Positions 49,316 to 62,057 of a DNA stretch of 64,000 nucleotides are shown one piece after another (positions within the stretch are counted from its first letter, which is position 1; the number at the start of each line of letters is the position of its first letter). Source of the stretch: Ruminococcus flavefaciens (GTDB lineage: Bacteria > Bacillota > Clostridia > Oscillospirales > Ruminococcaceae). The translations under genes were made by a program, and so were the position numbers. The stretch spans positions 62,001 through 126,000 of the forward strand of contig JAMPIL010000001.1 of NCBI GenBank assembly GCA_023662725.1, given 5' to 3'. Below the pieces are notes generated by a model. The model worked only from the letters and a program-made list of their open reading frames with translations, had not been told where the DNA came from and searched no databases.

Positions 49316-49349
49316 ATAGTACCTCCAATCAGAAGATCGAAGGTACTAT
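49316..49349 (-). terminator. Terminator at the end of the fumarate/Hdr operon
   Basis: ATAGTACCT (49316-49324) pairs with AGGTACTAT (49341-49349), 33 bases past the transporter stop. The T run is best on the plus strand, so it may be bidirectional. Confidence 0.65.
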
Positions 49350-49381: not shown

Positions 49382-50590
49382 TTAGAAAAGCATTATCAAA
49401 AATTGTGAAACGAGTACGACCGAAATAAGTGCAACGGGATATGTTGCTGCGTAAGCTGAAGCAACATTTTCCGTTCCAGAGGTACTGATGAGTGTACCAA
49501 GAGCTGGAGTTGAGGTCATTCCACCTGTAAGTGAACCAAGATTATTGAATAAGCTAAGCTTGAGAACATATTTTGCAAACAAGAATCCAAGAACCATTGG
49601 TACGATTGTCATGATAATTCCGTAAATAAAATAAATAGCATCAAAATACTGAACAAATTTTGCTCCTCCTGCAACACCTGCACCGATAAGGAAGAACATC
49701 AAACCAAGTTCACGGAAAACTTTGAGAGTTGAATCCTTAGGCATTATAGAAATTTTCCCACATCTTCCAAAATGACCGAATATTAGAGAAACAAGCAAAC
49801 ATCCGCCTGTTGTTGAAAGAGAAAAGTTCTTAAACTTAAATGAACCTATAACAATACCTATAACAGCGGCAAGCGCAAATGGCATAATACCAAAATCATC
49901 CATTTCAATAAGCTTTCCGTTATACGCTTTTTTTCCCGATTTTGAATCGGCAACCACAAGTTTTTCACGTTCAGCTTTTATATCTGCTTTAAGGATCTTA
50001 GGTATAATCTGAACAAAAAGAACAACACCGATAACACCAAAAATATAAGCTATAGCATAACCTACTGAAACGATGCTTTGAAGCTCTTCTGTTCCCACGG
50101 CGTCTTTTGCGGCAGAGAATCCAGGGGTGCTTGTGAGAGCACCAGATAAAATTCCTGTAAGCATTGCAGTAAATTCATCATTTGAAAGATCAGTAAAGTT
50201 TCTGCCAACAAATATACATCCTGCGCAAGCAAGCCCGCCGCTTAAAATAATGATAACAGCAAGCACAACATATGACTTGAAATTTTTCTTAAAATTACCA
50301 AAAAAATTTGGTCCGGCGATAAAGCCTACTGCGGTAACAAAAAGAATAAGTCCAAGATTATCGACAATCTTCAACGCATTGGTCACAAAATCCGTATTAA
50401 TCTCATTGGAAAGGTCTTTATAGAAAAGGCAGCCGTAAATAAGAGCAACTATAAAAACTCCGGCTGTTCCAAGAGATACTCCTTTGATAGTGATTCTACC
50501 AAGTATATATCCCAGAGCCGCAATGGCGATTACTGAAACCATAAGGAAAGAAACACCATGAATCGAAAGGATTCCGTTAAAAAATTCCAT
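49382..50590 (-). CDS. AspT/YidE/YbjL-type membrane exchanger
   Basis: 402 residues; start at ATG 50590 (MEFFNGILSIHG). About ten hydrophobic spans in two inverted halves, each with the GALTSTPGF/GGMTSTPALG motif typical of the aspartate:alanine exchanger (AAEx) family. The TrkA-C regulatory domains of YidE are absent. As last gene of a fumarase-fumarate reductase operon it probably exchanges C4-dicarboxylates or aspartate, for example succinate out for fumarate/aspartate in (inference). A hairpin at 50626-50650 between frdA and this gene may reduce its expression. Confidence 0.85.
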   Translation of the reverse strand: MEFFNGILSIHGVSFLMVSVIAIAALGYILGRITIKGVSLGTAGVFIVALIYGCLFYKDLSNEINTDFVTNALKIVDNLGLILFVTAVGFIAGPNFFGNFKKNFKSYVVLAVIIILSGGLACAGCIFVGRNFTDLSNDEFTAMLTGILSGALTSTPGFSAAKDAVGTEELQSIVSVGYAIAYIFGVIGVVLFVQIIPKILKADIKAEREKLVVADSKSGKKAYNGKLIEMDDFGIMPFALAAVIGIVIGSFKFKNFSLSTTGGCLLVSLIFGHFGRCGKISIMPKDSTLKVFRELGLMFFLIGAGVAGGAKFVQYFDAIYFIYGIIMTIVPMVLGFLFAKYVLKLSLFNNLGSLTGGMTSTPALGTLISTSGTENVASAYAATYPVALISVVLVSQFLIMLF

Positions 50591-50625
50591 TTTTTTATCA
50601 CTCTGCTTTCTTTTATACAAATTTG

Positions 50626-50650
50626 TGGGACGCTTTTTCAGAGCGTCCCA
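50626..50650 (-). terminator. Attenuator-like hairpin between frdA and the exchanger gene
   Basis: TGGGACGCT (50626-50634) pairs perfectly with AGCGTCCCA (50642-50650). No strong T run on the minus strand, so partial termination or mRNA stabilisation is likely. Confidence 0.55.
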
Positions 50651-50670
50651 TTAATTCATTTAATTGTTTT

Positions 50671-52275
50671 TTATTTTGATTTTCTTGCATAATGCGGAAG
50701 GAGCATTGGTGATGCAGTTTCATTCTGAATTCCTGCCTCAGCAAGTTCCTTGTTGAATTTATCAACATGAGCAAGCGTGAGTTTTTCAGGAACAGCTGTT
50801 TCCTTTGCCTTTGCAGCAGCGTAAATTCCAGCATTTCTGCCAAATACAATAACATCAAGAAGTGAATTTCCCATAAGTCTGTTTCTGCCGTGGATACCTC
50901 CGGCAACCTCTCCGGCTGCATAAAGATTCTCAACGCCTGTAGCACAGTCATCAGAAATATCAAGTCCGCCATTCTGATAATGAAGAGTCGGATACACGAG
51001 AATAGGTTCCTTACGGATATCAATTCCATATTTTCCGAACATTCTCATCATTGCAGGGATTCTCTTTTCAATAGTTCCCTCGCCATGAATAAGCTCTATC
51101 ATTGGAGTATCGAGCCATACAGCCTTGCCGAGATGCGTTTCAATGCCCTTGTTTCTTGCTGTACATTCACGGATGATCGAAGACGCTGTTACGTCACGTG
51201 TTTCAAGCGGATTCATGAAAACCTCGCCATCAATATTAACAAGCTTTGCTCCGAGTGAACGAACTTTTTCGGTTACGAGAGCACCGAAGATCTGCTCCGG
51301 ATAGCCTGTTCCTGTAGGATGATACTGGAGAGTATCAGCATAAAGAAGCTTTGCCCCAACTCTGTAACCCAGAATAAGACCATCAGCTGTTGCACCGTAG
51401 TGATTTGAAGTAGGGAAGCCCTGATAGTGAAGACGTCCTGCGCCGCCTGTTGCAATGATAACCGTTTTAGCTCTTGCAACAAGAAGCTCCTTTGTTTCCA
51501 TGTTCATAAGAACAGCGCCGGCTGCCTTTCCGTTTTCATCGAGAATGATCTCAACTGCGGCTGTAAAATCAACTACTGGAATTCCTCTGTTAAGAACCTC
51601 GTCACGAAGAGTCCTCATAATCTCTGCACCGGAATAATCCTTAGCAGCATGCATTCTCTTTCTGGATGTACCACCGCCATGAGTCGTAACCATAGTTCCG
51701 TCGGCTTCTTTATCAAATTCAACACCAAGTTTATTGAGCCACTGAATTGCCTCAGGAGCCTTTGTAACAAGCTTCTTAACAAGCTCCGGCTTAGCAGCAA
51801 AATGTCCGCCGCCGAATGCATCGAGGTAATGAATAGCAGGAGAATCGTTTGGCTTGTCAGCAGCCTGAATACCGCCCTCTGCCATCATTGTATTTGCATC
51901 GCCGATACGAAGCTTTGTAACGATCATTGCCTTGGCTCCGGCTTCATCAGCTTCGATAGCAGCAGATGCACCTGCACCGCCGCCTCCAATAATAAGAACA
52001 TCGGTATCGTAATCAGGATTGCTTAAATCAACGTCCGACGAGCTGATTCTGCTTTTGCCCTGAAGAAGCTCTGCAAGCTGAGTAGGAACCTTATCGCCCT
52101 TATTTACGCCTGCTGAAAGCACTGTAAATTCATCCTGCTTATAATCAGGGTGAAATGTTGCAAGAAGGGTATCCTTTTCTTCTGCTGTCATTCTTCTCGG
52201 TTCGAGACTTGCGTTTTCTGCTCTTTTTTCAGCAACGACCTTTGCAAGCTCATTCAGCTTTTCGATTTTATACAT
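50671..52275 (-). CDS. Soluble fumarate reductase flavoprotein subunit
   Basis: 534 residues. An ~85-residue N-terminal extension precedes the FAD fold (GGGGAGASAA at 97-106). The active site region has THGGGTSRKR, LQYHPTG (His ~319) and the catalytic Arg in TRDVTA (~360); AGEVAGGIHGRNRLMGNS is the second FAD motif. The SHT motif whose His binds FAD covalently in membrane fumarate reductases is ANT here (Asn128), so FAD should be non-covalent. No anchor subunit is present. Located directly behind frdB and the Flx/Hdr genes, it likely reduces fumarate to succinate with electrons from HdrB/FrdB. Symbol left blank (frdA/tfrA-like). Confidence 0.9.
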   Translation of the reverse strand: MYKIEKLNELAKVVAEKRAENASLEPRRMTAEEKDTLLATFHPDYKQDEFTVLSAGVNKGDKVPTQLAELLQGKSRISSSDVDLSNPDYDTDVLIIGGGGAGASAAIEADEAGAKAMIVTKLRIGDANTMMAEGGIQAADKPNDSPAIHYLDAFGGGHFAAKPELVKKLVTKAPEAIQWLNKLGVEFDKEADGTMVTTHGGGTSRKRMHAAKDYSGAEIMRTLRDEVLNRGIPVVDFTAAVEIILDENGKAAGAVLMNMETKELLVARAKTVIIATGGAGRLHYQGFPTSNHYGATADGLILGYRVGAKLLYADTLQYHPTGTGYPEQIFGALVTEKVRSLGAKLVNIDGEVFMNPLETRDVTASSIIRECTARNKGIETHLGKAVWLDTPMIELIHGEGTIEKRIPAMMRMFGKYGIDIRKEPILVYPTLHYQNGGLDISDDCATGVENLYAAGEVAGGIHGRNRLMGNSLLDVIVFGRNAGIYAAAKAKETAVPEKLTLAHVDKFNKELAEAGIQNETASPMLLPHYARKSK

Positions 52276-52289
52276 ATCAATACTCCTCC

Positions 52290-52973
52290 TTACTTTTCGA
52301 TCTCACGAGAGTTATACAGGTCTTTAACTTCCTGTATATTATCAACCGACTTAGCCATAAGCTCTGCGATCTTTTCATCAAAGATACCTTCGTTGATCTC
52401 TTTTACACGATCAGCAAGGTGCTCGCATTCAGGAGCGATATATTTACCGTTAAGTCTTCTTGCAAGCATAGCTACCTGCGGATGAGAAATTCCTGCAGGA
52501 CAGCGTGAGGAACATACTCCGCACATTACGCAATCGAAGGATTCTTCTGCACACTTATCATACTCGCCTCGCTGAGCGTATGCAATATACTGCATAACGT
52601 TAAGTTCCTGAGTACAAGCTTTTGTGCAGGCATTACAGCCGATACAGCAGTAAATTTCCGGATAGAGCTGCATCATTATCTGCTCTGTAGGCTTGATCTC
52701 ATTTATGTTATAAACCTGCTTTACAAGCGGGAAGAAAGGAAGTGTAGCAACATACATTCCCTCCTGAACTTCTGTCTGACAAGCGAGACAGGCATGAAGC
52801 TCCTGCTTATCTTTCATTCTGTAAATAGTTGCACAAGCTCCGCAGAAACCGTTGCGGCAGCCGCAGCCTCTTACAAGCTCATAGCCTGCATATTCCATAG
52901 CTGTCATTATTGTAAGACCTGCCGGCACCTGATATTTTTTGCCGAACAGATAAACATTTACCATATTTTCCAT
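52290..52973 (-). CDS. Fumarate reductase iron-sulfur subunit
   Basis: 227 residues; start at MENMVNVYLF with AAGGAG nine bases upstream. The N-terminal ferredoxin-like domain binds 2Fe-2S (GCGCRNGFCGACA … CLAC). The C-terminal helical domain has two cysteine sets (CIGCNACTKACTQE and CVMCGVCSSRCPAG) for 4Fe-4S and 3Fe-4S/4Fe-4S clusters. SdhB/FrdB-type, shorter than usual and lacking sequences for a membrane anchor. The methanogen thiol:fumarate reductase subunit TfrB joins such a domain to HdrB-like domains, a precedent for coupling FrdB with the HdrB encoded upstream. 16 bases from flxA. Confidence 0.9.
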   Translation of the reverse strand: MENMVNVYLFGKKYQVPAGLTIMTAMEYAGYELVRGCGCRNGFCGACATIYRMKDKQELHACLACQTEVQEGMYVATLPFFPLVKQVYNINEIKPTEQIMMQLYPEIYCCIGCNACTKACTQELNVMQYIAYAQRGEYDKCAEESFDCVMCGVCSSRCPAGISHPQVAMLARRLNGKYIAPECEHLADRVKEINEGIFDEKIAELMAKSVDNIQEVKDLYNSREIEK

Positions 52974-52989
52974 GCTTAGATGCTCCTTT

Positions 52990-53835
52990 TTAATATTCGT
53001 CAGGCAGTTCGCCCAGTTCGTCGTAACGGAAAACAGGACCGTCTTTGCAGACATACTTATTTCCGATATTGCAGCGTCCGCACTTGCCGACTCCGCATTT
53101 CATACGAAGCTCCATAGTTGTATAAACCTGAGTTTCAGTGAAACCAAGCTCTTTAAGACCGTTAAGTGTGAACTTGATCATGATCGGAGGTCCGCAGATA
53201 AGAACAGTTTTGTTTAAGGACGGATTAAGTTCTTTTACATAATTGGGAACGAATCCAACGTGACCATCCCAGCCTTCCTGTTCTCTGTCTATAGTAAGAT
53301 TTACTTCGATTCCGTCATCGTTCATCCATTCATCAATGATCTCTTTGTAATCAACGAGATCGTCCATAGAACGTGAACCGTAAACTATCTGAACGTCACC
53401 GTAGTTTGCTCTATTATCACGAACATAATTTATTACCGAACGGAGCGGAGCAAGACCGATTCCTCCGGCGATAAACAGAAGGTCCTTGCCTTTCAGCTCT
53501 GTTTCAACAGGGAAAGCGTTGCCGTAAGGTCCTCTTATAGTGATCTGCTGACCAACATCCATAGCGTGAAGCCAATTTGTGAGACAGCCGCACTTTTTAA
53601 TGCTGAATTCCATAAATTCCTTATTTGTAGGAGAAGAGGTTATCGAAAACATCGCCTCGCCTACTCCGGGAATAGAAAGCATTGCGCACTGACCGGGCAT
53701 ATGCTCGAAAACTTTTCCGCCGACTGTTCCGTCTGCGCTTATTGCGTTGACTCTGAAAGTCTTTACATCAGGAGTATCAATTCTGATATCAGTAACGACT
53801 CCGATATGCGGGATTAATGTATCATTAGCGTTCAT
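52990..53835 (-). CDS. flxA: FlxA-like FAD/NAD(P)H-binding subunit
   Basis: 281 residues. Ferredoxin-NADP reductase fold: FAD-binding beta barrel (RGPYGNAFPV), NAD(P) domain (LLFIAGGIGLAPLRS, VYGSR) and a C-terminal 2Fe-2S motif (CGVGKCGRCNIG … CKDGP). This is the sulfhydrogenase-gamma/HydG layout of FlxA, the NADH-oxidising input of Flx-Hdr complexes. Start overlaps the flxB stop by one base. Supplies electrons to the 4Fe-4S subunits and then to HdrA. Confidence 0.88.
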   Translation of the reverse strand: MNANDTLIPHIGVVTDIRIDTPDVKTFRVNAISADGTVGGKVFEHMPGQCAMLSIPGVGEAMFSITSSPTNKEFMEFSIKKCGCLTNWLHAMDVGQQITIRGPYGNAFPVETELKGKDLLFIAGGIGLAPLRSVINYVRDNRANYGDVQIVYGSRSMDDLVDYKEIIDEWMNDDGIEVNLTIDREQEGWDGHVGFVPNYVKELNPSLNKTVLICGPPIMIKFTLNGLKELGFTETQVYTTMELRMKCGVGKCGRCNIGNKYVCKDGPVFRYDELGELPDEY

Positions 53836-54854
53836 TACTTAACCTCCAATGCTTTCATTACCTTAACGATATTCATTGAAATAGGACACTTTGAAAGACA
53901 TCTTCCGCATCCTACGCATCCGAATTCGCCGTTGTTGTTTGCAGGGAAATACACAAGCTTGTGCATAAATCTCTGACGGAAACGCTCAAGCTGAGAAATT
54001 CTCGGATTTCCGTGAGCCATTTTTGTAAAGTCAGAATACATACATGAATCCCAGCAGCGGAAACGCTTTATGCCGTTTCCGGTATTGAAATCCTTTATAT
54101 CATAGCACTGACAGGTCGGGCAGACGAACGTACAGGTTCCGCATCCAATACAGCTCTCGGAAAGCTCAGCCCACTTTTCAGATTTAAAATATTCATTAAG
54201 CTTGTCGCCGCCGAACGAATCTGTTGACAGATTTGAAAGCGGAAGAAGTGAAAGAATTCTCTTTGTTTCAGCCTTAACGCTTTCAAGGCTTGAAGCGTCT
54301 CCATCTTCAAGGAGAGAAGCGACTGAATCGACAAATGCTTTTCCTTTTTCTGTATTCGCTTCAAAGTATATATAACTTTCGTCATTCCAGCAGGAAACAT
54401 CCCCTTCCGGAGCAGTCGGATCAATTCCGAAAGCTGAACAGAAGCAGGTCTCAGCCGGACGTGTACAAGCCATTGAAACTACAACGCCGTGATCACGTCT
54501 GTTTTTATAGAAGCTGTCCACCGGATCAACAAGATAAACTTTATCAAGAATAGTAAAACTTCTTGCATCGCAGGCACGAACACCGAAAATCACGAAATCT
54601 TCAGATTCTTCACGAACATCGTTTACTTCGATCTGCTTGCCTTCCATTTTAAATTCAACAAGATTCTCTGTCTGAGGGAAAAAGAAATCCTTTGCACTTC
54701 TGAGAGTGTTAAGAGAATTGCTCATTTTCATTCCGCTCTCATATTTTTTATATTCAGCAGCTCCGTCCTCACGGTCAACAGGAATATAAAGAGTCTGTTT
54801 TTCAGCAATTGCATCAAAAAGGCTGTCAATTTTATCAATCGCAATTCTGAGCAT
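53835..54854 (-). CDS. flxB: FlxB-like 4Fe-4S subunit
   Basis: 339 residues, sulfhydrogenase-beta-like. CFCSAFG (~137-143) and CIGCGTCTFVCPTCQC (~237) in the middle, and CVGCGRCLSKCPISM near the end, give at least two 4Fe-4S clusters plus extra cysteines. It connects FlxA (NADH) with the other subunits. Tightly coupled: stop of flxC and start overlap by one base. Confidence 0.85.
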   Translation of the reverse strand: MLRIAIDKIDSLFDAIAEKQTLYIPVDREDGAAEYKKYESGMKMSNSLNTLRSAKDFFFPQTENLVEFKMEGKQIEVNDVREESEDFVIFGVRACDARSFTILDKVYLVDPVDSFYKNRRDHGVVVSMACTRPAETCFCSAFGIDPTAPEGDVSCWNDESYIYFEANTEKGKAFVDSVASLLEDGDASSLESVKAETKRILSLLPLSNLSTDSFGGDKLNEYFKSEKWAELSESCIGCGTCTFVCPTCQCYDIKDFNTGNGIKRFRCWDSCMYSDFTKMAHGNPRISQLERFRQRFMHKLVYFPANNNGEFGCVGCGRCLSKCPISMNIVKVMKALEVK

Positions 54855-55825
54855 TATTCGACACCCCTTTCGTGAACGATACTTGCTTCGCAGTCATCTG
54901 TAGTATAAGCATTGAGAGGAGCTTTTGTTGTAGTATCCTCGCCTGCCTGATATTCGCCGTAAAGCGAATTGATATCCTTGATAAACTTTCTGTTAAGGAG
55001 ATGAAGAGGAATATTCTGAGGGCAAACTCTTGAACATTCGCCGCAGTCTGTACATCTTCCGGCAACGTGGAATGCACGGATAATATGGAACATATTCTCT
55101 TCAAAGCTATTTGAAGCAGCTTTATTTTCAATTCCTGAATCAGGATTATCAAATACGCACTTTTCGCAGGTGCAAGCCGGACAGACGTTACGGCAAGCAT
55201 TGCAGCGTATGCATTTAGAAAGTTCAGCTCTCCAGAAATCATAACGCTCCTGAGCTGTCATATTCTCAAGCTTTTCAACCATATCGAAACGGTTGGATTC
55301 AAGAACATCGCCGTCCTCGCCGATAAGTTCATCATAAGTAACGTGCTTTTTGCTCTTGCAAGCTGCACACTTATCGCTTATTGCTTCATAGAAAGGCATA
55401 GTCTGCTCGCCGTAAACAGTTTCGATTTTCAGAGTATAGTTCTCATTCTTGATTCCTGTGATACCTGTGATCCCATTTGCCTTTATCTTGTCAGCATCAA
55501 GCTTAGGACCGCCGGGAATTCCCACAACATAAATGTTGTCACGATCAACTCGATGTTCTTTTGTGAGCTGATTAAGGCTGTATGTATCGCAGGGTTTGAG
55601 GAAAGCGAGGATCTTGCCCTCTTTTTTGCTTTCTTTCACAAGGTATTTTGAAACGTTTGCAGCAGTAAATTCATCGTAAACGAAATCAGCGTCAATTTCC
55701 TCTGCTGTTTCAAAAATTGCCGGAGTAATATCGTATACAAATTCACCCTTTTTCCAGCCGATCACACGATTCACTGTTCCGTCAGCCAGAAGCTGCTTTG
55801 CTTTATTAATCATTGCTTCTTGCAT
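54854..55825 (-). CDS. flxC: FlxC-like 4Fe-4S subunit
   Basis: 323 residues. N-terminal ~190 residues resemble F420/F-type beta subunits (KPCDTYSLNQL); CAACKSKKH follows at about 153. Then CIRCNACRNVCPACTCEKC and CTDCGECSRVCPQN give two more clusters. It is the second ferredoxin-like wire of the Flx part. 16-base overlap with flxD. Confidence 0.82.
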   Translation of the reverse strand: MQEAMINKAKQLLADGTVNRVIGWKKGEFVYDITPAIFETAEEIDADFVYDEFTAANVSKYLVKESKKEGKILAFLKPCDTYSLNQLTKEHRVDRDNIYVVGIPGGPKLDADKIKANGITGITGIKNENYTLKIETVYGEQTMPFYEAISDKCAACKSKKHVTYDELIGEDGDVLESNRFDMVEKLENMTAQERYDFWRAELSKCIRCNACRNVCPACTCEKCVFDNPDSGIENKAASNSFEENMFHIIRAFHVAGRCTDCGECSRVCPQNIPLHLLNRKFIKDINSLYGEYQAGEDTTTKAPLNAYTTDDCEASIVHERGVE

Positions 55826-56256
55826 CGTAAATCCTCCAATCTGCGGTTAGGTCCGAGCTTTTTAACGGCTTCGGTAAACTCGTTCATAGTTGCTGCGAAT
55901 TTTGCGCCTTCAGCAGCAGAAACCCATTCAACTCTTGTACGGTCACGCTCGATTCCGAGGTAATCAAGCATACTGAAAAGAAGAGTCATTCTTCGGCGTG
56001 TAAAGTAATTTCCCGAAGTATAGTGGCAGTCGCCGGGATGACAGCCGCAGAGAATAACTCCGTCAGCGCCTCTCTGGAAAGCACGAAGAATAAACATAGG
56101 ATTTACACGGCATGAACATGGAACTCTTATGATTTTAACATTTGTCGGGTAATTAAGTCTGTTTGTGCCTGAAAGATCGGCTCCTGCATAGGAACACCAG
56201 TTACAGCAGAATGCAACGATCAGCGGCTGAAATTCTTTATTATCATTTACTTGCAT
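55810..56256 (-). CDS. flxD: FlxD/MvhD-like 2Fe-2S subunit
   Basis: 148 residues with the complete MvhD pattern: FCCNWCSYAGAD, the CSCRVNP segment, and GCHPGDCHY. In methanogens MvhD bridges hydrogenase and HdrA through a 2Fe-2S cluster; in Flx complexes it links FlxBC to HdrA. Overlaps hdrA by 10 bases, flxC by 16. Length normal. Confidence 0.93.
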   Translation of the reverse strand: MQVNDNKEFQPLIVAFCCNWCSYAGADLSGTNRLNYPTNVKIIRVPCSCRVNPMFILRAFQRGADGVILCGCHPGDCHYTSGNYFTRRRMTLLFSMLDYLGIERDRTRVEWVSAAEGAKFAATMNEFTEAVKKLGPNRRLEDLRCKKQ

Positions 56257-58238
56257 ATTGCGTCTACCTCCGCCATAATCTGACTGTTAGAGAAGCCGTT
56301 AAGATCCATAGCTCCTGATGGACAAGCTACCGTACAAGCGCCGCATCCCTGGCAAACAGCAGGATTAACGCTTGCAACTCTGCGTATTGCAGTTGTACGG
56401 TCGGGCATTCTGAATTCCTTATCCTGATATGTGATAGCTCCATATGGACAAACCTTTTCACATGAAGAACATCCATTACACATAAGCTCGTTTGAATGAG
56501 CAACACATGGATTGCAGGTGATGCTGTTTTTACAGAGAAGTCCGATAGCTTTTGCAGCGGCAGCGCTTGCCTGAGCAACAGTTTCAGGAATATCCTTTGG
56601 TCCCTGACAAGCTCCGGAAAGGAAAATACCGGCTGTTGCACTTTCAACAGGACGAAGCTTTGGATGAGCCTCTGTAAAGAAATCGTTTGTATCCATCTGT
56701 GTTGTAAGCATTGTTGCGAGTGGACGAGCTGTTTTGTCCGGCTCGATAGCTGCAGCGAGAACTACCATATCAGCGTCGATATGAAGCTGTTCGTTTGAAA
56801 GCAGGTCAGACGCCTGGACGTCAAGTTTTCCGTCCGACTTAGGAGTTACCTTGCCGACCATTCCCTTAACATAGTGTACATTGTACTGTTCAACTGCTCT
56901 TCTGTAGAATTCATCGAAATTCTTTCCGGGAGTACGAACATCTATGTAGAAAACATAAACCTCTGTATCCGGATATTTCTCACGGATGAGCATTGCGTGC
57001 TTTGCGGTATACATACAGCAAATTTTTGAGCAATAAGCCTTACCCTTGCTGTCGTCGCATCTTGAACCGACACACTGTACGAAAACGATAGTATGCGGAT
57101 GAGTTTTATCAGAAGGACGAAGAAGCGTTCCGCCGTTAGGACCTGCGGCATTCATAAGTCTCTCAAGTTCAAGAGAAGTAACTACGTCAGGACTCTGAGA
57201 GTATGCAAATTCATCATATTTATCAAGTTTTATAGGATTAAATCCCGTTGCAACAACAATCGCGCCGTATTTTTCTTCAATAAACTTATCCTGCTGCTTG
57301 TAGTCAATAGCTCCTACGGAACATACCTTTGAACATACTCCGCACTTGCCGTTTTTAAGCATCATACAGTAATTCGGATCAATTGTAGCAACCTTCGGAA
57401 CTGCCTGTGCGAAAGGAATATAAACTGCTCTTCTGGTATCAAGTCCCATGTTGAATTCATTAGGAACTTTCTTCATCGGACACTTTTCTGTACAAAGTCC
57501 GCATCCGGTACATTTAGTCTCATCAACGTAACGAGCTTTCTTCTTGATTGTAACGCTAAAGTTTCCAACGAATCCCTTAACATCCGAAACTTCACTGAAA
57601 GAGTGGATATGTATTTTTTCGTTCTGTGAGCATTCAACCATTTTAGGTGTAAGAATACAAGCGGCACAGTCAAGAGTCGGGAAAGTTTTATCGATCTGGG
57701 CCATTTTACCGCCGATAGTCGGTTCTTTCTCTACAATATCAACCTCGAAACCTGCCTCGGCAATATCAAGTGCAGTCTGGATTCCGGCGATTCCTCCGCC
57801 GATAACGAGTGCTCTTTTAACAACAGGACTCTCTCCTGCTGTAAGAGGGGCGTTGAGGTGAACTTTTGCGATGGCAGCTCTTCCAAGGATTACAGCCTTT
57901 TCAGTTGCTGTAGCTATATCCTTATGAATCCATGAACACTGCTCACGGATGTTTGCTATTTCAACAAGATACGGATTCAGTCCGGCAGCAGCAGCAGCCT
58001 TTCTGAATGTATTTTCATGCATTCTCGGTGAACATGAACAGATAACAACGCCTGACAGATTATGTTCTTTTATAGCGTCCTTAACGAGATTCTGTCCGGA
58101 TTCTGAACACATATACTGATAATCCTGGGAGATAACGACACCAGGTTCATGTCCAAGAGCTTCTGCAACAGCCTTAACATCTATTGTAGCTGCGATATTT
58201 GTACCGCAGTGACAGACAAAAACACCAATTCTCTGCAT
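56247..58238 (-). CDS. hdrA: HdrA flavoprotein, electron-bifurcating subunit
   Basis: 663 residues. N-terminal VFVCHCGTNIA and CSCSPRMHE motifs; thioredoxin-reductase-like FAD fold with LVIGGGIAGIQTA (~144) and the LDCAACILTPK cysteine motif; an inserted ferredoxin (CTGCGLCTEKCP, ~243, with CGVCSKVC); and a C-terminal 2[4Fe-4S] domain (CNGCSSCEKVCPYG, CQGCGACTVACPSG). In heterodisulfide reductases HdrA's FAD splits electrons between ferredoxin and HdrB. All cluster sites seen in bifurcating HdrA appear intact. GGAGG at the start, 15 bases after hdrC. Confidence 0.95.
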   Translation of the reverse strand: MQRIGVFVCHCGTNIAATIDVKAVAEALGHEPGVVISQDYQYMCSESGQNLVKDAIKEHNLSGVVICSCSPRMHENTFRKAAAAAGLNPYLVEIANIREQCSWIHKDIATATEKAVILGRAAIAKVHLNAPLTAGESPVVKRALVIGGGIAGIQTALDIAEAGFEVDIVEKEPTIGGKMAQIDKTFPTLDCAACILTPKMVECSQNEKIHIHSFSEVSDVKGFVGNFSVTIKKKARYVDETKCTGCGLCTEKCPMKKVPNEFNMGLDTRRAVYIPFAQAVPKVATIDPNYCMMLKNGKCGVCSKVCSVGAIDYKQQDKFIEEKYGAIVVATGFNPIKLDKYDEFAYSQSPDVVTSLELERLMNAAGPNGGTLLRPSDKTHPHTIVFVQCVGSRCDDSKGKAYCSKICCMYTAKHAMLIREKYPDTEVYVFYIDVRTPGKNFDEFYRRAVEQYNVHYVKGMVGKVTPKSDGKLDVQASDLLSNEQLHIDADMVVLAAAIEPDKTARPLATMLTTQMDTNDFFTEAHPKLRPVESATAGIFLSGACQGPKDIPETVAQASAAAAKAIGLLCKNSITCNPCVAHSNELMCNGCSSCEKVCPYGAITYQDKEFRMPDRTTAIRRVASVNPAVCQGCGACTVACPSGAMDLNGFSNSQIMAEVDAICK

Positions 58239-58253
58239 AGTATTATCTCCTCC

Positions 58254-58637
58254 TTACTTAGTGTATTTTCTGAATGCTGTAACGATTGCCTGCTGTGGCA
58301 GATCATCATCAAGCATAGCCGGAATCTGATCCGGGATAAGATGATTATTACCCTGCTGACGAACTGCTGCAAGACGAACAGCTTCAACGACCTTTGCAGG
58401 CTCGACATTTCTCGGGCATCTTTCAACGCAGGCAAAGCAGGTCAGGCACTTATAAAGCGACTTTGAATTCATAAGCTTTTCAATATCGCCCTTTTCAACC
58501 ATATATACAAACTGATGCGGATGATATTCCATCTCGTCATACGAAGGGCAGGTTCCGGAGCATTTTCCGCAGCGCATACATTTAAGAACGTTAACGCCGC
58601 TTGTTCTGAGAACCTGTTCCTGAAGATTCTTATTCAT
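58254..58637 (-). CDS. hdrC: HdrC iron-sulfur subunit
   Basis: 127 residues with two 4Fe-4S motifs, CMRCGKCSGTCPSYDEM and CLTCFACVERCPRN, and the GDIEKLM linker usual for HdrC. It carries electrons from HdrA to HdrB. Overlaps hdrB by 8 bases. No hydrophobic span, so cytoplasmic. Confidence 0.95.
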   Translation of the reverse strand: MNKNLQEQVLRTSGVNVLKCMRCGKCSGTCPSYDEMEYHPHQFVYMVEKGDIEKLMNSKSLYKCLTCFACVERCPRNVEPAKVVEAVRLAAVRQQGNNHLIPDQIPAMLDDDLPQQAIVTAFRKYTK

Positions 58638-59427
58638 TATTTGCCTCCTTTAAGCCAAGAGCCTCGGCAAGAAGTTCCGTAAAGTAGTAAACAGGAAGTG
58701 AAGAACCGGAATTCTTCTTTAAATTATAAAGACAGAGCGGGCAAGCTGTTATTATCATATCAGCACCATGATCTTCGGCGCTGTTCATAACTGCGCTGCT
58801 TCTTTTTGCAGCCTGAGTCTTATCTTCCATTGTTATGTATCCGCCGCAGCATTCGTTTCTCTGAGCGTAAATAACAGGAGTTCCGCCAATGGCCTTGATG
58901 AAATCTTCCATTATAGTAGGATTTTCAGGATCGTCCATAGCAAGAGCTTTGGATGGACGAAGAAGCAGACAGCCGTAATATGCAGCTATCTTTTTGCCCT
59001 TGAACGGATTTACAACCTTTTGTGCAAGATTATCAAATCCAACAACGTCACGAAGCATTTCGAGATAGTGATAAACGGTAGTTTCGCCGTTATAAGGCTC
59101 GTCAAGCTTAAGATAATTGTTTATCTTGAAAGCCATCTGCTCATCACGGGAAATATCGTAATTTGTCTGTTTTATTACATTGTGACAAGCTGAACAGACC
59201 GTTACAAGAGGTCTGCCGAGTTCCTTTGCCGCATTAAGAGTTCTTACAGCGGAAAGTTTTGTTGCGTTTTCGTTAGTTGCGGTAGTGTAAGCACCTCCGC
59301 AGCACTGCCAGTCAGACGGCTCTTCAAGAATGATTCCAAGAGCCTCGGCAGAAGACCTTGCATATGCGTCAAGATCTTTAGCCTTAGTTCTGAGCGTACA
59401 GCCGGGATAATATGTGAAAGTATTCAT
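58630..59427 (-). CDS. hdrB: HdrB, CCG-domain subunit
   Basis: 265 residues with two CCG domains: YYPGCTL…QCCGG…CSACH and YYGCLLLRP…ECCGG…CPLC. These cysteines bind the two non-cubane 4Fe-4S clusters that reduce disulfides in heterodisulfide reductase. All are conserved, so the site should be active. The natural oxidant here is unknown: no DsrC or CoM system is encoded in the window, and the fumarate reductase encoded downstream is the candidate acceptor. 78 bases after fumarase. Confidence 0.93.
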   Translation of the reverse strand: MNTFTYYPGCTLRTKAKDLDAYARSSAEALGIILEEPSDWQCCGGAYTTATNENATKLSAVRTLNAAKELGRPLVTVCSACHNVIKQTNYDISRDEQMAFKINNYLKLDEPYNGETTVYHYLEMLRDVVGFDNLAQKVVNPFKGKKIAAYYGCLLLRPSKALAMDDPENPTIMEDFIKAIGGTPVIYAQRNECCGGYITMEDKTQAAKRSSAVMNSAEDHGADMIITACPLCLYNLKKNSGSSLPVYYFTELLAEALGLKEANNE

Positions 59428-59505
59428 AAGTACGCTTCCTTTCGTGTGAATATCTTAAAATCTGTAGCAATAAGACGATACATAATCATCTGTTGATAAA
59501 GATTT

Positions 59506-60882
59506 TTAAACCATTTCTTCGGGATGGAAAACCTCGTCAAACTTCTCCTCGCTGAGGAAACCAAGCTCAACGCAGGCTTCTTTAAGGGAAATATTATCCT
59601 TAAATGCTTTTTTTGCAGTCTTTGCAGCATTCTCGTATCCAATATATGGATTAAGAGCTGTAACGAGCATGAGAGAGTTATGAAGATTGTGGTGCATTTT
59701 TTCTTTGTTAGCCTTGATTCCTACAGCACAGTTTTTGTTGAAGGAAAGTATAGACTCAGAAAGAAGTCTTGCGGACTGAAGGAAATTATATGCGCATACA
59801 GGCATAAATACATTCAGTTCAAAATTTCCCTGTGAAGCGGCCATGCCAACTGCAACATCGTTACCCATTACCTGTACGGCAACCATAGTAACCTGTTCGC
59901 ACTGAGTCGGATTTACCTTGCCCGGCATGATAGAAGAACCAGGTTCGTTTTCGGGAATAAAAATTTCTCCAAGACCGTCACGAGGACCTGATGCAAGCCA
60001 CCTTACATCGTTTGCAATCTTCATCATATCAGCTGCAAGTGCCTTGAGAGCACCGTGTGCAAATACGATCTCATCCTTTGAAGTAAGAGAGTGGAACTTG
60101 TTTGGAGCAGTAACGAAATTCTTTCCTGTAAGCTCACTTATAGCCTCTGCTGCTTTTTCAGCGAATCCCTTAGGAGCATTAAGACCTGTTCCAACGGCTG
60201 TTCCGCCGAGAGCCAGTTCTTTAAGCTCTTCGCATGATGAAAGTATCATTTTTCTGTCTTTTTCCAGAGAAGCTCTCCAACCGCTTATTTCCTGGGAAAA
60301 TTTAATAGGAGTAGCATCCTGAAGATGAGTACGTCCGCTTTTAACAATACCCTCATTTTCCTCTTCAAGTCTCTTAAATGTATCAATAAGAGTATCAACA
60401 GCAGGAATAACCTTGTCCTCAAGCGCAATAACAGCCGCAATATGCATAGCAGTCGGGAACGTATCATTAGAGGACTGACTCATATTTATATCATCATTAG
60501 GATGAAGAAGCTTTGCTCCGGCAATTTCATTTCCACGGTTTGCAATAACCTCATTAGCGTTCATATTAGACTGCGTACCGCTTCCGGTCTGCCATACAAC
60601 AAGAGGAAAATGCTCGTTAAGAGAGCCGCTTATAACCTCGTCGCACGCCTTTGAAATGGCTGAAAGCTTTTCATCAGTCATTTTTTCAGGTTTAACACTG
60701 TGATTAGCGACAGCTGCCGCTTTTTTCAGAATTCCGAATGCATGAGTAATTTCTCTTGGCATTGTTTCAATTCCTACACCGATAAGAAAATTTTCATGGC
60801 TTCGCTCTGTCTGAGCTGCCCAATACTTATCAGCAGGAACTTTAACTTCACCCATAGAATCGTGTTCAATACGGTATTCCAT
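59506..60882 (-). CDS. fumC: Fumarase class II (FumC)
   Basis: 458 residues from ATG 60882 (MEYRIEHDSMGEV) with GGGAG ~10 bases upstream. The superfamily signature GSSIMPGKVNPTQCE (SS loop with catalytic Ser) is present, as are the SSNDTFPTA and TGLNAPKGF segments. It interconverts malate and fumarate; oxygen-stable, iron-free. First gene of the fumarate reduction operon. Confidence 0.96.
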   Translation of the reverse strand: MEYRIEHDSMGEVKVPADKYWAAQTERSHENFLIGVGIETMPREITHAFGILKKAAAVANHSVKPEKMTDEKLSAISKACDEVISGSLNEHFPLVVWQTGSGTQSNMNANEVIANRGNEIAGAKLLHPNDDINMSQSSNDTFPTAMHIAAVIALEDKVIPAVDTLIDTFKRLEEENEGIVKSGRTHLQDATPIKFSQEISGWRASLEKDRKMILSSCEELKELALGGTAVGTGLNAPKGFAEKAAEAISELTGKNFVTAPNKFHSLTSKDEIVFAHGALKALAADMMKIANDVRWLASGPRDGLGEIFIPENEPGSSIMPGKVNPTQCEQVTMVAVQVMGNDVAVGMAASQGNFELNVFMPVCAYNFLQSARLLSESILSFNKNCAVGIKANKEKMHHNLHNSLMLVTALNPYIGYENAAKTAKKAFKDNISLKEACVELGFLSEEKFDEVFHPEEMV

Positions 60883-61415
60883 TGTAATATCCACTCCCAA
60901 AATTGTTTATTCTGTAAAAATCGTTTAATTGATTTTCAGCATTTTACTACATAATATAAGTATATCAGCAAGACCGGATAATTTCAAATTCAGTTTAAGA
61001 ATATTGCTATTCATATAATAATATATAATTAACAATAATTATATTCTCCGAAACAGAAAACATTATGTTAAATTGTACTATATCAGTTTTAATATTCCAA
61101 TGCAACTTACGATTTACTATTCTGAATAAATTTTTTCACTCTCGGAATAGTACTGTCAACAAGCAAAAAACTGCATTTATCGTTAGTTATCCAAACCTGA
61201 TCAAAACAATATATGCTTAATTCAAAATTGAATCATTTCATCATATCATTCATTCACATTGATTAATTTACAGCATGGTATGCCGATACGGAATATTAAA
61301 ATATACAATAGAGAATAATCCGGCACTGTGATTGATAAAAAATTCACATTCATTTTATGTGAAACCAAAGATATAAATTTAATATTTCATCCGAAGTTTG
61401 ATTAAGGAATTGTTA
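60883..61415. other. AT-rich leader of the fumarase/Hdr operon
   Basis: 533 bases without a coding frame. A weak Rex-like half-palindrome TTGTTTATTCTGTAAAAA lies at 60903-60920, just upstream of fumC; I see no full TTGTTAA-N4-TTAACAA. A TTGACA on the minus strand (complement of 61156-61161) has no good -10. No RNA structure recognised. Confidence 0.4.
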
Positions 61416-62057
61416 TTAATAATCAACATTCATTGAATTCAACCTGTACGATAAAGTCGTCAGACTATCTCCGAGATGAACATTTTCAACTGCTGCTTCT
61501 TTATGGAAAGCCCTCAAATCGTAATGAGTAAAGTTCCAGAAAGCCTTTATTCCACATTTTATAAGCCTTTCTGTCATCTGCTCTGCATCCGACGTAGGTA
61601 TACACAAAATTGCTGCAACCGGAGAGACTTCAGCACAGAAGCTTTCTATCTCATCTGAACTTTTTATCGTTATATCTCCAATTTCTTTACCAATCAAAAT
61701 CGGATTAATGTCGAATGCTCCGATAAGTTCAAAGCCCTTGCTTCTGAAATCAAGATGTGTGGCAATTGCTTTTCCGAGATTTCCTGCACCAAGAAGGATC
61801 ATCGGCGTCAGATTATCGAGTCCGAGTATTTTGCCGATCTCCTCACGCAGTGCGCTTACATTATAACCATAGCCTTGCTGTCCGAATTCACCGAAACAAT
61901 TGAAATCCTGACGAATCTGCGAAGCAGTAAGTCCCATTTTTTCAGACAATTCTCTTGATGAAATACGAACATAGCCCTCGCTTTTAAGCTCGCCGAGAAA
62001 TCTGTAATATCTCGGCAGCCTTCTGATCACCGAATTTGATATCGAGTTTTTTGACAT
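61416..62057 (-). CDS. rex: Redox-sensing transcriptional repressor Rex
   Basis: 213 residues. N-terminal winged helix (ISSRELSEKMGLTASQIRQDFNCFG) and a Rossmann NAD(H) domain with LLGAGNLGKAIATH and GAFDINPILIG. Rex senses NADH/NAD+ and represses fermentative and respiratory genes when NADH is low. It is 22 bases downstream of icd and directly upstream of the fumarase/Hdr/fumarate reductase operon, a sensible regulator for it. Confidence 0.96.
   Translation of the reverse strand: MSKNSISNSVIRRLPRYYRFLGELKSEGYVRISSRELSEKMGLTASQIRQDFNCFGEFGQQGYGYNVSALREEIGKILGLDNLTPMILLGAGNLGKAIATHLDFRSKGFELIGAFDINPILIGKEIGDITIKSSDEIESFCAEVSPVAAILCIPTSDAEQMTERLIKCGIKAFWNFTHYDLRAFHKEAAVENVHLGDSLTTLSYRLNSMNVDY

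What the first reader, a model, noticed from the sequence alone, without database searches (positions are those of the whole stretch)
49382..60882. Operon joining a complete Flx-Hdr bifurcation module to a soluble fumarate reductase
Seen: one minus-strand run fumC-hdrB-hdrC-hdrA-flxD-flxC-flxB-flxA-frdB-frdA-exchanger, with most junctions overlapping or under 20 bases. All diagnostic cluster motifs are intact. Known: FlxABCD-HdrABC confurcates/bifurcates NADH electrons to ferredoxin and a disulfide (DsrC in sulfate reducers), and methanogen TfrAB links FrdA/FrdB-type subunits to HdrB-like domains. Inferred: here fumarate takes the place of the disulfide, giving a soluble complex that does 2 NADH + fumarate + oxidised ferredoxin to succinate + reduced ferredoxin. 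That would be an energy-conserving fumarate reduction without membrane anchor, and no partner for HdrB other than FrdAB is encoded here.
Basis: partly seen in the sequence, partly recalled or inferred. Interest (0 to 1): 0.92.

Follow-up and report, generated by a model that had tools for sequence, protein, structure and literature searches.

The report
Operon coupling fumarate reduction to bifurcation
A gut or rumen Ruminococcus carries a conserved gene set that probably lets the cell use NADH to reduce fumarate to succinate while saving part of the energy as reduced ferredoxin, an idea already proposed in print for a related bacterium but not yet proven in the test tube.

Summary
An uninterrupted minus-strand run fumC-hdrBCA-flxDCBA-frdBA-exchanger lies at 49382-60882 with its motifs intact. 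It is not new: the same gene series ('succinate operon') and the same NADH/ferredoxin/fumarate hypothesis are printed for Pseudoclostridium thermosuccinogenes (PMC7282089, citing a 2019 preprint that I could not read). My contribution is comparative evidence. In 341 class-wide genomes, 46 of the 47 with this FrdB also carry FlxD; all nine core genes are present in 38 of 47, the other 9 loci being cut at contig ends. Fumarase lies near the core in 33 of 47, as class II (18) or the unrelated class I enzyme (15), never both. The genome has one HdrB, no DsrC, and no second fumarate reductase candidate apart from an L-aspartate-oxidase-like protein; it has Rnf and [FeFe] hydrogenases. FrdAB resembles methylmenaquinol:fumarate reductase (predicted non-covalent FAD, a second [4Fe-4S], an HdrB/SdhE-like partner). 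Against exclusivity: at phylum scale Hdr genes were found beside only 22 of 39 such FrdB loci; others sit with malic enzyme, pyruvate carboxylase or NapC-type cytochromes. Bifurcation onto fumarate is likely but biochemically unshown.

The parts
59506..60882 (-). fumC, class II fumarate hydratase (458 aa), first gene of the run
   Evidence: TIGR00979 711.7 bits, above its cut-off 664.75
58630..59427 (-). hdrB (265 aa), two CCG domains for two non-cubane [4Fe-4S] clusters; best NCBIfam hit is MFR subunit SdhE (146 bits), then HdrB (131 bits), both below cut-off
   Evidence: all ten cysteines conserved in 109 of 109 unique sequences; homologous to solved HdrB chains
58254..58637 (-). hdrC (127 aa), two [4Fe-4S] motifs
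   Evidence: eight cysteines conserved in 112 of 112 unique sequences
56247..58238 (-). hdrA (663 aa), FAD plus [4Fe-4S] subunit, the expected bifurcating flavin site
   Evidence: 698 bits to 5odc_A, aligned over residues 3-660; NF040770 802.6 bits
55810..56256 (-). flxD (148 aa), MvhD/FlpD-type linker subunit
   Evidence: PF02662 1.4e-55
54854..55825 (-). flxC (323 aa), iron-sulfur subunit; its three solved matches are F420-dependent formate dehydrogenase chains
53835..54854 (-). flxB (339 aa), AsrA/sulfhydrogenase-beta-like iron-sulfur subunit
52990..53835 (-). flxA (281 aa), FAD/NAD(P)-binding entry subunit with DHODB-type FeS domain
   Evidence: PF00175, PF10418, PF00970 above cut-off
52290..52973 (-). 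frdB (227 aa), one [2Fe-2S] and two [4Fe-4S] motifs, no CCG domain
   Evidence: twelve ligand-type cysteines invariant in 131 unique sequences
50671..52275 (-). frdA (534 aa), fumarate-reductase-type flavoprotein; about 90-aa N-terminal extension, no Succ_DH_flav_C hit, Asn128 where the covalent-FAD His lies in E. coli FrdA
49382..50590 (-). AspT/YidE-type exchanger (open from TTG 50620; ATG at 50590), candidate succinate exporter
   Evidence: PF06826 210 bits, TIGR01625 148 bits above cut-off; sequence read
50625..50651 (.). hairpin between frdA and the exchanger
   Evidence: -18.8 kcal/mol, z -5.0; terminator-like pattern on the other strand
49316..49349 (-). terminator-like hairpin downstream of the exchanger
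   Evidence: 15 pairs, pattern scan only
61018..61035 (-). remnant of a Rex-like half site (TTGTTAA) in the rex-fumC intergenic region; a near-palindromic form is seen in 16 of 27 loci of the genus
   Evidence: window; 27 loci; the stricter Rex pattern is not enriched in the window
61416..62057 (-). rex, NADH-sensing repressor, upstream on the same strand; context, not part of the complex
   Evidence: NF003990 279 bits above cut-off 233; before fumC in 27 loci

Best explanation
The cassette encodes a soluble NADH-dependent, ferredoxin-reducing fumarate reductase. FlxA takes a hydride from NADH; FlxBC and FlxD pass electrons to the FAD of HdrA, which bifurcates them. One stream goes to ferredoxin, the other through HdrC/HdrB to the iron-sulfur clusters of FrdB and the non-covalent FAD of FrdA, where fumarate becomes succinate. 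Net: 2 NADH + fumarate + 2 Fd(ox) give 2 NAD+ + succinate + 2 Fd(red). FumC makes the fumarate, the AspT-type exchanger probably exports succinate, and Fd(red) is used by Rnf (ion pumping) or hydrogenase. Shown here: gene content, intact motifs, conserved linkage, no other fumarate reductase candidate found by PF00890 except a protein nearest to L-aspartate oxidase, presence of Rnf and hydrogenase genes. Inferred: bifurcation with fumarate as the high-potential acceptor, the HdrB-FrdB contact, stoichiometry, direction and transporter substrate.
For: Linkage: 12 of 12 FlxD genomes carry FrdB in 119 family genomes; 46 of 47 FrdB genomes carry FlxD in 341 class genomes; core nine present in 38 of 47, the other 9 cut at contig ends. 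One genome (G384) has frdBA moved to the front yet still beside hdrBCA-flxDCBA. Substrate: class II fumarase 22-230 nt upstream in 18 of 47, unrelated class I fumarase near the core in 15, both in 0; 26 of 47 also have an LDH/MDH-family gene with Arg at the specificity position. FrdA residues H319, R339, H432, R466 invariant in 104 sequences. Two full FAD_binding_2 proteins in the genome: this FrdA and one nearest to L-aspartate oxidase. One HdrB, no DsrC match. HdrA 698 bits to a methanogen HdrA of solved structure. Precedent: W. succinogenes MFR pairs FrdA/B-type subunits with a 10-cysteine SdhE related to heterodisulfide reductases, has non-covalent FAD, a second [4Fe-4S] in SdhB and no detected succinate oxidation (PMC2680327); HdrB's best NCBIfam hit is SdhE. 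TfrB spans FrdB-, HdrC- and HdrB-like segments in one protein. With textbook potentials: about -33 to -49 kJ/mol.
Against: I found no biochemistry for this complex. At phylum scale Hdr genes were found beside FrdB of this family in 22 of 39 loci, and 5 of those 22 show hdrCB without HdrA or Flx, so FrdAB can probably use other donors. Six of 52 class-sample FlxD genomes lack FrdB. Three of 47 class loci have at least 3 kb on both sides and no fumarase there. HdrB keeps all ten cluster cysteines, so it could still reduce a disulfide. In R. flavefaciens, methanogen co-culture lowers succinate (PMC7174568), while added H2 almost abolishes it in P. thermosuccinogenes (PMC7282089); the two do not give one simple prediction. 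No complex structure could be modelled.
Confidence: 0.68

Rival explanations
1. Co-expression without a shared complex: Flx-Hdr reduces a disulfide (small thiol or unknown protein) with bifurcation as proposed for sulfate reducers, and FrdAB takes electrons from that thiol or from another donor.
For: HdrB keeps both non-cubane cluster motifs in 109 of 109 sequences; FrdAB of this family occurs near NapC-type cytochromes, malic enzyme or pyruvate carboxylase with no Hdr gene found in other lineages; TfrAB uses thiols (recalled).
Against: No DsrC match in the genome; FrdB has no CCG domain to oxidise thiols itself; FrdB and FlxD co-occur in 46 of 47 class genomes and the core stays together through a rearrangement.
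Confidence: 0.14
2. A non-bifurcating NADH:fumarate reductase: Flx-Hdr is only a soluble wire from NADH to FrdAB, and the energy is lost as heat.
For: No sequence test here distinguishes a bifurcating from a non-bifurcating flavin; fumarate reduction by NADH alone is strongly downhill.
Against: HdrA aligns over its whole length with solved HdrA of methanogen complexes, known as bifurcating (recalled); the genome has Rnf and hydrogenases that could use Fd(red).
Confidence: 0.1
3. The complex runs backwards in vivo: succinate and Fd(red) drive NAD+ reduction (confurcation).
For: The reaction is formally reversible; an isocitrate dehydrogenase gene lies nearby.
Against: Invariant Asn in place of the covalent-FAD His; E. 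coli and yeast variants lacking that bond lost succinate oxidation (PMC2680327); R. flavefaciens produces succinate (PMC7174568).
Confidence: 0.04
4. FrdA acts on another unsaturated acid or is a second aspartate oxidase.
For: The flavoprotein superfamily has many substrates; NadB (TIGR00551) scores 276 bits against this FrdA.
Against: Best NCBIfam hit is TfrA (346.9 bits); dicarboxylate residues invariant; another genome protein is nearer to NadB (439.6 vs cut-off 452.75); fumarase neighbours of two unrelated kinds.
Confidence: 0.04

Closest known systems
'Succinate operon' of Pseudoclostridium thermosuccinogenes (PMC7282089; hypothesis credited there to Preprints 2019 10.20944/preprints201912.0288.v1)
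   Same: [quoted passage not shown] same proposed chemistry; organism also has Rnf.
   Different: Different organism; I compared descriptions, not sequences. In the paper the operon is up about 4-fold under CO2 limitation (not significant for all subunits); I have no such data for the window's organism.
FlxABCD-HdrABC of Desulfovibrio vulgaris (Ramos 2015; not read, recalled and cited in PMC7282089)
   Same: All seven subunit types are present here in one run.
   Different: The acceptor proposed there is a disulfide such as DsrC (recalled); here no DsrC was found and frdBA is part of the cassette.
Methylmenaquinol:fumarate reductase SdhABE of Wolinella succinogenes (PMC2680327)
   Same: FrdA-type subunit with no covalent-FAD histidine, FrdB-type subunit with a second [4Fe-4S] in place of [3Fe-4S], 10-cysteine HdrB-related partner.
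   Different: MFR is exported and takes electrons from membrane quinol; here no Tat-type signal was seen by eye and the partner sits in an NADH-linked set. Bit scores are far below the MFR cut-offs.
Thiol:fumarate reductase TfrAB of methanogens
   Same: FrdA's best NCBIfam hit is TfrA; TfrB holds segments matching FrdB, HdrC and HdrB.
   Different: TfrA score 346.9 is below its cut-off 718; FrdB lacks the CCG domain.
tfrAB with flxABCD-hdrABC in gammaproteobacterial rTCA clusters (PMC6315080)
   Same: A fumarate reductase interspersed with flx-hdr genes, suggested to form one complex.
   Different: Placed there in carbon fixation together with korABCD; TfrAB-type enzyme.

Membership tests
FlxABCD-HdrABC | FlxA with FAD- and NAD-binding domains | tested here: met
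   PF00175, PF00970, PF10418 above cut-off
FlxABCD-HdrABC | FlxB and FlxC iron-sulfur subunits and MvhD-type FlxD | tested here: met
   PF17179 in FlxB, Fer4 domains in FlxC, PF02662 in FlxD
FlxABCD-HdrABC | HdrA with FAD and several [4Fe-4S] domains; HdrB with two CCG motifs; HdrC with two [4Fe-4S] | tested here: met
   HdrB and HdrC cysteines invariant
FlxABCD-HdrABC | NADH-dependent ferredoxin reduction coupled to a second acceptor | not testable with these tools
   no assay possible
P. thermosuccinogenes type fumarate reductase operon | fumarase, hdrABC-flxABCD, frdBA and putative transporter in one series | tested here: met
   gene order; compared with the paper's text, not with its sequence
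Thiol:fumarate reductase TfrAB | TfrB with C-terminal CCG domains | tested here: not met
   FrdB has no PF02754 hit
Thiol:fumarate reductase TfrAB | TfrA above the curated score | tested here: not met
   346.9 bits against cut-off 718
Methylmenaquinol:fumarate reductase (class E) | no covalent-FAD histidine in the flavoprotein | tested here: met
   Asn128 invariant in 104 sequences; aligned with the E. coli His
Methylmenaquinol:fumarate reductase (class E) | second [4Fe-4S] instead of [3Fe-4S] in the FeS subunit | tested here: met
   two CxxCxxCxxxC motifs invariant in 131 sequences
Methylmenaquinol:fumarate reductase (class E) | subunits above curated MFR scores | tested here: not met
   SdhE 146 vs 500, SdhA 221 vs 1100
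Methylmenaquinol:fumarate reductase (class E) | Tat export and quinol oxidation | not tested
   no signal-peptide tool; no hydrophobic N-terminus seen by eye
Classical quinol:fumarate reductase FrdABCD | membrane anchor FrdC/D beside frdAB | tested here: not met
   no such gene in the operon; not searched genome-wide

The most novel reading that the evidence does not exclude
FrdAB, HdrABC and FlxABCD form one stable soluble complex in which the HdrB non-cubane clusters hand electrons straight to FrdB, so that fumarate replaces the disulfide as high-potential acceptor of flavin-based bifurcation. Together with Rnf this would give fumarate respiration without quinone or cytochrome in many gut and rumen Clostridia, with FrdAB a swappable acceptor module that other lineages plug into HdrCB, NapC-type cytochromes or other donors. 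The N-terminal extension of FrdA would be the docking element.
Probability: 0.55. Interest if true: 0.72.

Novelty: new member of a known kind. Interest (0 to 1): 0.5.

Why it matters
If right, many succinate-producing gut and rumen Clostridia conserve energy at the fumarate step without quinones, which changes ATP and hydrogen budgets for rumen succinate and for industrial succinate producers. FrdAB would be a new kind of bifurcation acceptor. The comparative data here make the published hypothesis directly testable in a culturable succinate producer, R. flavefaciens, two strains of which (FD-1, ATCC 19208) carry the whole operon.

Tried and rejected
Rejected: that linkage is an accident of one genome. 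Rejected: that FrdA is the genome's L-aspartate oxidase; another protein is nearer to that family, though just below its cut-offs. Rejected: that FrdAB is bound to Flx-Hdr in every lineage. Not upheld: a Rex site in the window. The stricter pattern gave 10 matches with 9.96 expected; a looser one gave 83 with 62 expected, reached by 1 of 100 shuffles, but over the whole window, not at fumC. I count by eye 16 of 27 rex-fumC regions with a TTGTTAA-type near-palindrome. Corrected: the upstream gene of relatives was first labelled malate dehydrogenase from Pfam; NCBIfam puts L-lactate dehydrogenase first in 4 of 4 scanned and above that cut-off for TIGR01771, but 26 of 26 carry Arg at the position where, from recall, Gln marks lactate and Arg malate dehydrogenases (20 by pattern, 6 read by eye). 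MDH is preferred, not proven. Errors made and mended: one search used a wrong fumC frame, so its fumC identities are void (redid them); one search missed the class I fumarase of L129 by an identity threshold (34.9%) although Pfam had found it, so its counts 14 (class I) and 15 (none) became 15 and 14. One search repeats with alignments shown. Searches of print; only open-licence PMC papers are held, and the 2019 preprint and Ramos 2015 were not read, so priority beyond PMC7282089 is unknown to me. The hypergeometric values ignore shared ancestry.


Full report
What is there. The window is contig 11, 62001-126000, of a 3.11-Mb, 99.96% complete genome. The 31 best FrdB relatives among named genomes (L049-L079) are 85-94% identical; 30 of the 31 records are labelled Ruminococcus, among them R. 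flavefaciens ATCC 19208 and FD-1. The genome therefore looks like a member of the R. flavefaciens group. Eight of ten junctions overlap or are at most 16 nt. The exchanger is set apart by 50-80 nt and a strong hairpin, so its place in the same transcript is less certain than that of the other ten. rex and an isocitrate dehydrogenase gene lie upstream on the same strand.

Anatomy. HdrA aligns over its whole length with the solved methanogen HdrA (698 bits). HdrB has both CCG motifs; its ten cysteines are conserved in 109 of 109 unique relatives. FrdB has one [2Fe-2S] and two four-cysteine [4Fe-4S] motifs, invariant in 131 unique relatives, and no CCG domain. FrdA has the dicarboxylate-site residues H319, R339, H432 and R466 (they align with E. 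coli FrdA; which residues matter is recalled) and they are invariant in 104 sequences. Asn128 replaces the histidine that binds FAD covalently in E. coli. FrdA begins with about 90 residues before the FAD domain that match no solved structure (best E 1.1), and no Succ_DH_flav_C domain was found. I read the extension as a possible docking element; that is inference.

Linkage in relatives. Family sample, 119 genomes: FrdB of this clade (E at most 1e-70) in 14, next match 3.7e-7; FlxD in 12; all 12 have FrdB. The two FrdB genomes without a FlxD hit (G086, G072) have their FrdB contig cut inside the operon. Class sample, 341 genomes: FrdB in 47, FlxD in 52, both in 46. The exception, G189, has a contig that ends inside flxC. 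FlxD without FrdB occurs in six: G150's contig ends just after flxA; G155, G188 and G272 have hdrC, a long hdrA reading frame (1013-1493 aa) and flx genes but no match to this hdrB; G140 has hdrC/hdrA/flxD matches only; G183 was not fetched. Of the 47 class loci, 38 have all nine core genes and the other nine are cut at a contig end; 46 keep the order hdrBCA-flxDCBA-frdBA, and one (G384) has frdBA in front of hdrBCA-flxDCBA. All 80 named loci keep the order of the genes present; 62 have all nine and 18 are cut. Those 80 are the best-scoring of at least 577, so they are biased to close relatives and may overlap the other samples. In the genus 107 of 125 genomes have FrdB; among those at least 90% complete and at most 5% contaminated, 64 of 68.

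Substrate. In the class sample 18 of 47 loci have class II fumarase (fumC) 22-230 nt upstream of the core and 15 have the two-subunit class I fumarase (14 downstream of frdA at 26-3692 nt, 1 upstream in G384); none has both. Fourteen show no fumarase: 11 have less than 3 kb on at least one side and 3 (L137, L143, L175) have at least 3 kb on both sides. Class I and class II fumarases are unrelated proteins (general knowledge), so recruitment of one or the other near the same core argues for fumarate as the substrate. Twenty-six of 47 also have an LDH/MDH-family gene with Arg at the specificity position, and 29 of 47 the AspT-type exchanger at 44% identity or more. The AspT family includes the C. 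glutamicum succinate exporter SucE1 (PMC9527358, passages).

Own genome. One gene with CCG domains, no DsrC match, nine FAD_binding_2 matches of which two are full length: this FrdA and a protein nearest to L-aspartate oxidase. RnfC is above its cut-off (430 vs 246 bits) and there are three [FeFe]-hydrogenase large-subunit matches. R. flavefaciens makes succinate (passage in PMC7174568), so this FrdAB is the best fumarate reductase candidate found. Fd(red) could be used by Rnf or hydrogenase.

Beyond the class. In 398 phylum genomes FrdB (E at most 1e-30) occurs in 39 and FlxD in 156; 35 of 39 have both. I read all 39 neighbourhoods, the window's own and 38 fetched. Six have the full hdr-flx set, four of them with frdBA first. 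Eleven have flxD with a second HdrA-like gene, nine of these with hdrC, hdrB and hdrA in view and two cut by contig or locus ends (L223, L229). Five have only hdrCB (one, L224, on a 3.8-kb contig). Seven have malic enzyme, class I fumarase or an LDH/MDH gene and no Hdr found (malic enzyme confirmed in L201, L205, L206, L210, L227; L204 and L207 lie near a locus end). Three have pyruvate carboxylase (all scanned). Two have NapC/NirT-type cytochromes. Five are other. So Hdr genes were found beside 22 of 39 and flxD beside 17 of 39. Hdr was sought here with the window's proteins at E 1e-6, so a distant Hdr could be missed. FrdAB looks like a module that changes donors, and Flx-Hdr is its constant neighbour only in some lineages, the window's class among them.

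Mechanism. Best reading: NADH enters at FlxA, HdrA bifurcates, ferredoxin takes the low-potential stream, and HdrC/HdrB pass the other to FrdB and FrdA. The closest tested precedent for the acceptor side is the W. succinogenes SdhABE enzyme: a 10-cysteine SdhE related to heterodisulfide reductases, a second [4Fe-4S] in SdhB, non-covalent FAD and no detected succinate oxidation (PMC2680327, abstract and passages). HdrB's best NCBIfam match is that SdhE family, though below cut-off. The TfrB model aligns with FrdB at its start, HdrC in its middle and HdrB at its end, so one natural protein combines the three parts. With textbook potentials the overall reaction is about -33 to -49 kJ/mol, enough for bifurcation. 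None of this is biochemistry.

What is known. The same gene series is described as the succinate operon of P. thermosuccinogenes, with fumarate reductase assumed to be linked to ferredoxin reduction on the strength of a 2019 preprint, an approximately 4-fold rise of the operon under CO2 limitation, and near loss of succinate under H2 (PMC7282089, passages and section 8). A complex of flx-hdr with thiol:fumarate reductase was suggested for gammaproteobacteria (PMC6315080, passages). The listings of my searches showed no paper that joins R. flavefaciens with such an operon, within the open-licence library only. The finding is a new member of a known, biochemically untested kind.

Regulation. In 27 loci of the genus rex lies before fumC; by eye 16 have a near-palindromic TTGTTAA-type site (mean least mismatches 2.6 against 4.5 in simple shuffles, not corrected for relatedness). 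In the window only the left half remains and the stricter scan shows no excess. NADH control by Rex is a suggestion only.

Noticed in passing
61018-61035 and 61416-62057: rex lies before fumC in 27 loci of the genus, with a Rex-like near-palindrome in 16 of them but only a half site in the window.
   Followed up: partly
50625-50651: Strong hairpin (z -5.0) between frdA and the exchanger, which may set the exchanger's expression apart or act as a terminator for the other strand.
   Followed up: partly
phylum-sample FlxD hits, e.g. G498, G746, G585: Many FlxD/FlpD homologues outside the class read through one in-frame TGA, possibly selenocysteine.
   Followed up: no
L129 1418-3121 (G384): An aldehyde:ferredoxin oxidoreductase gene follows the rearranged frdBA-hdrBCA-flxDCBA set, a ferredoxin-linked neighbour.
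   Followed up: no
L034 15253-16677 and a few other loci: A monomeric [FeFe] hydrogenase (TIGR04105) lies near frdA in L034; 4 of 47 class loci have a hydrogenase match over 35%.
   Followed up: partly
L200 11787-15062 and similar loci: A roughly 1090-aa HdrA-like protein sits between hdrA and flxD in a phylum-level variant of the frdBA locus.
   Followed up: no
L198 8354-9013 and L211 10338-10754: FrdBA of this family near NapC/NirT-type cytochromes: perhaps a quinol-linked version of the same reductase.
   Followed up: no
G855: One genome of the genus carries two full-length FrdB genes on different contigs.
   Followed up: no
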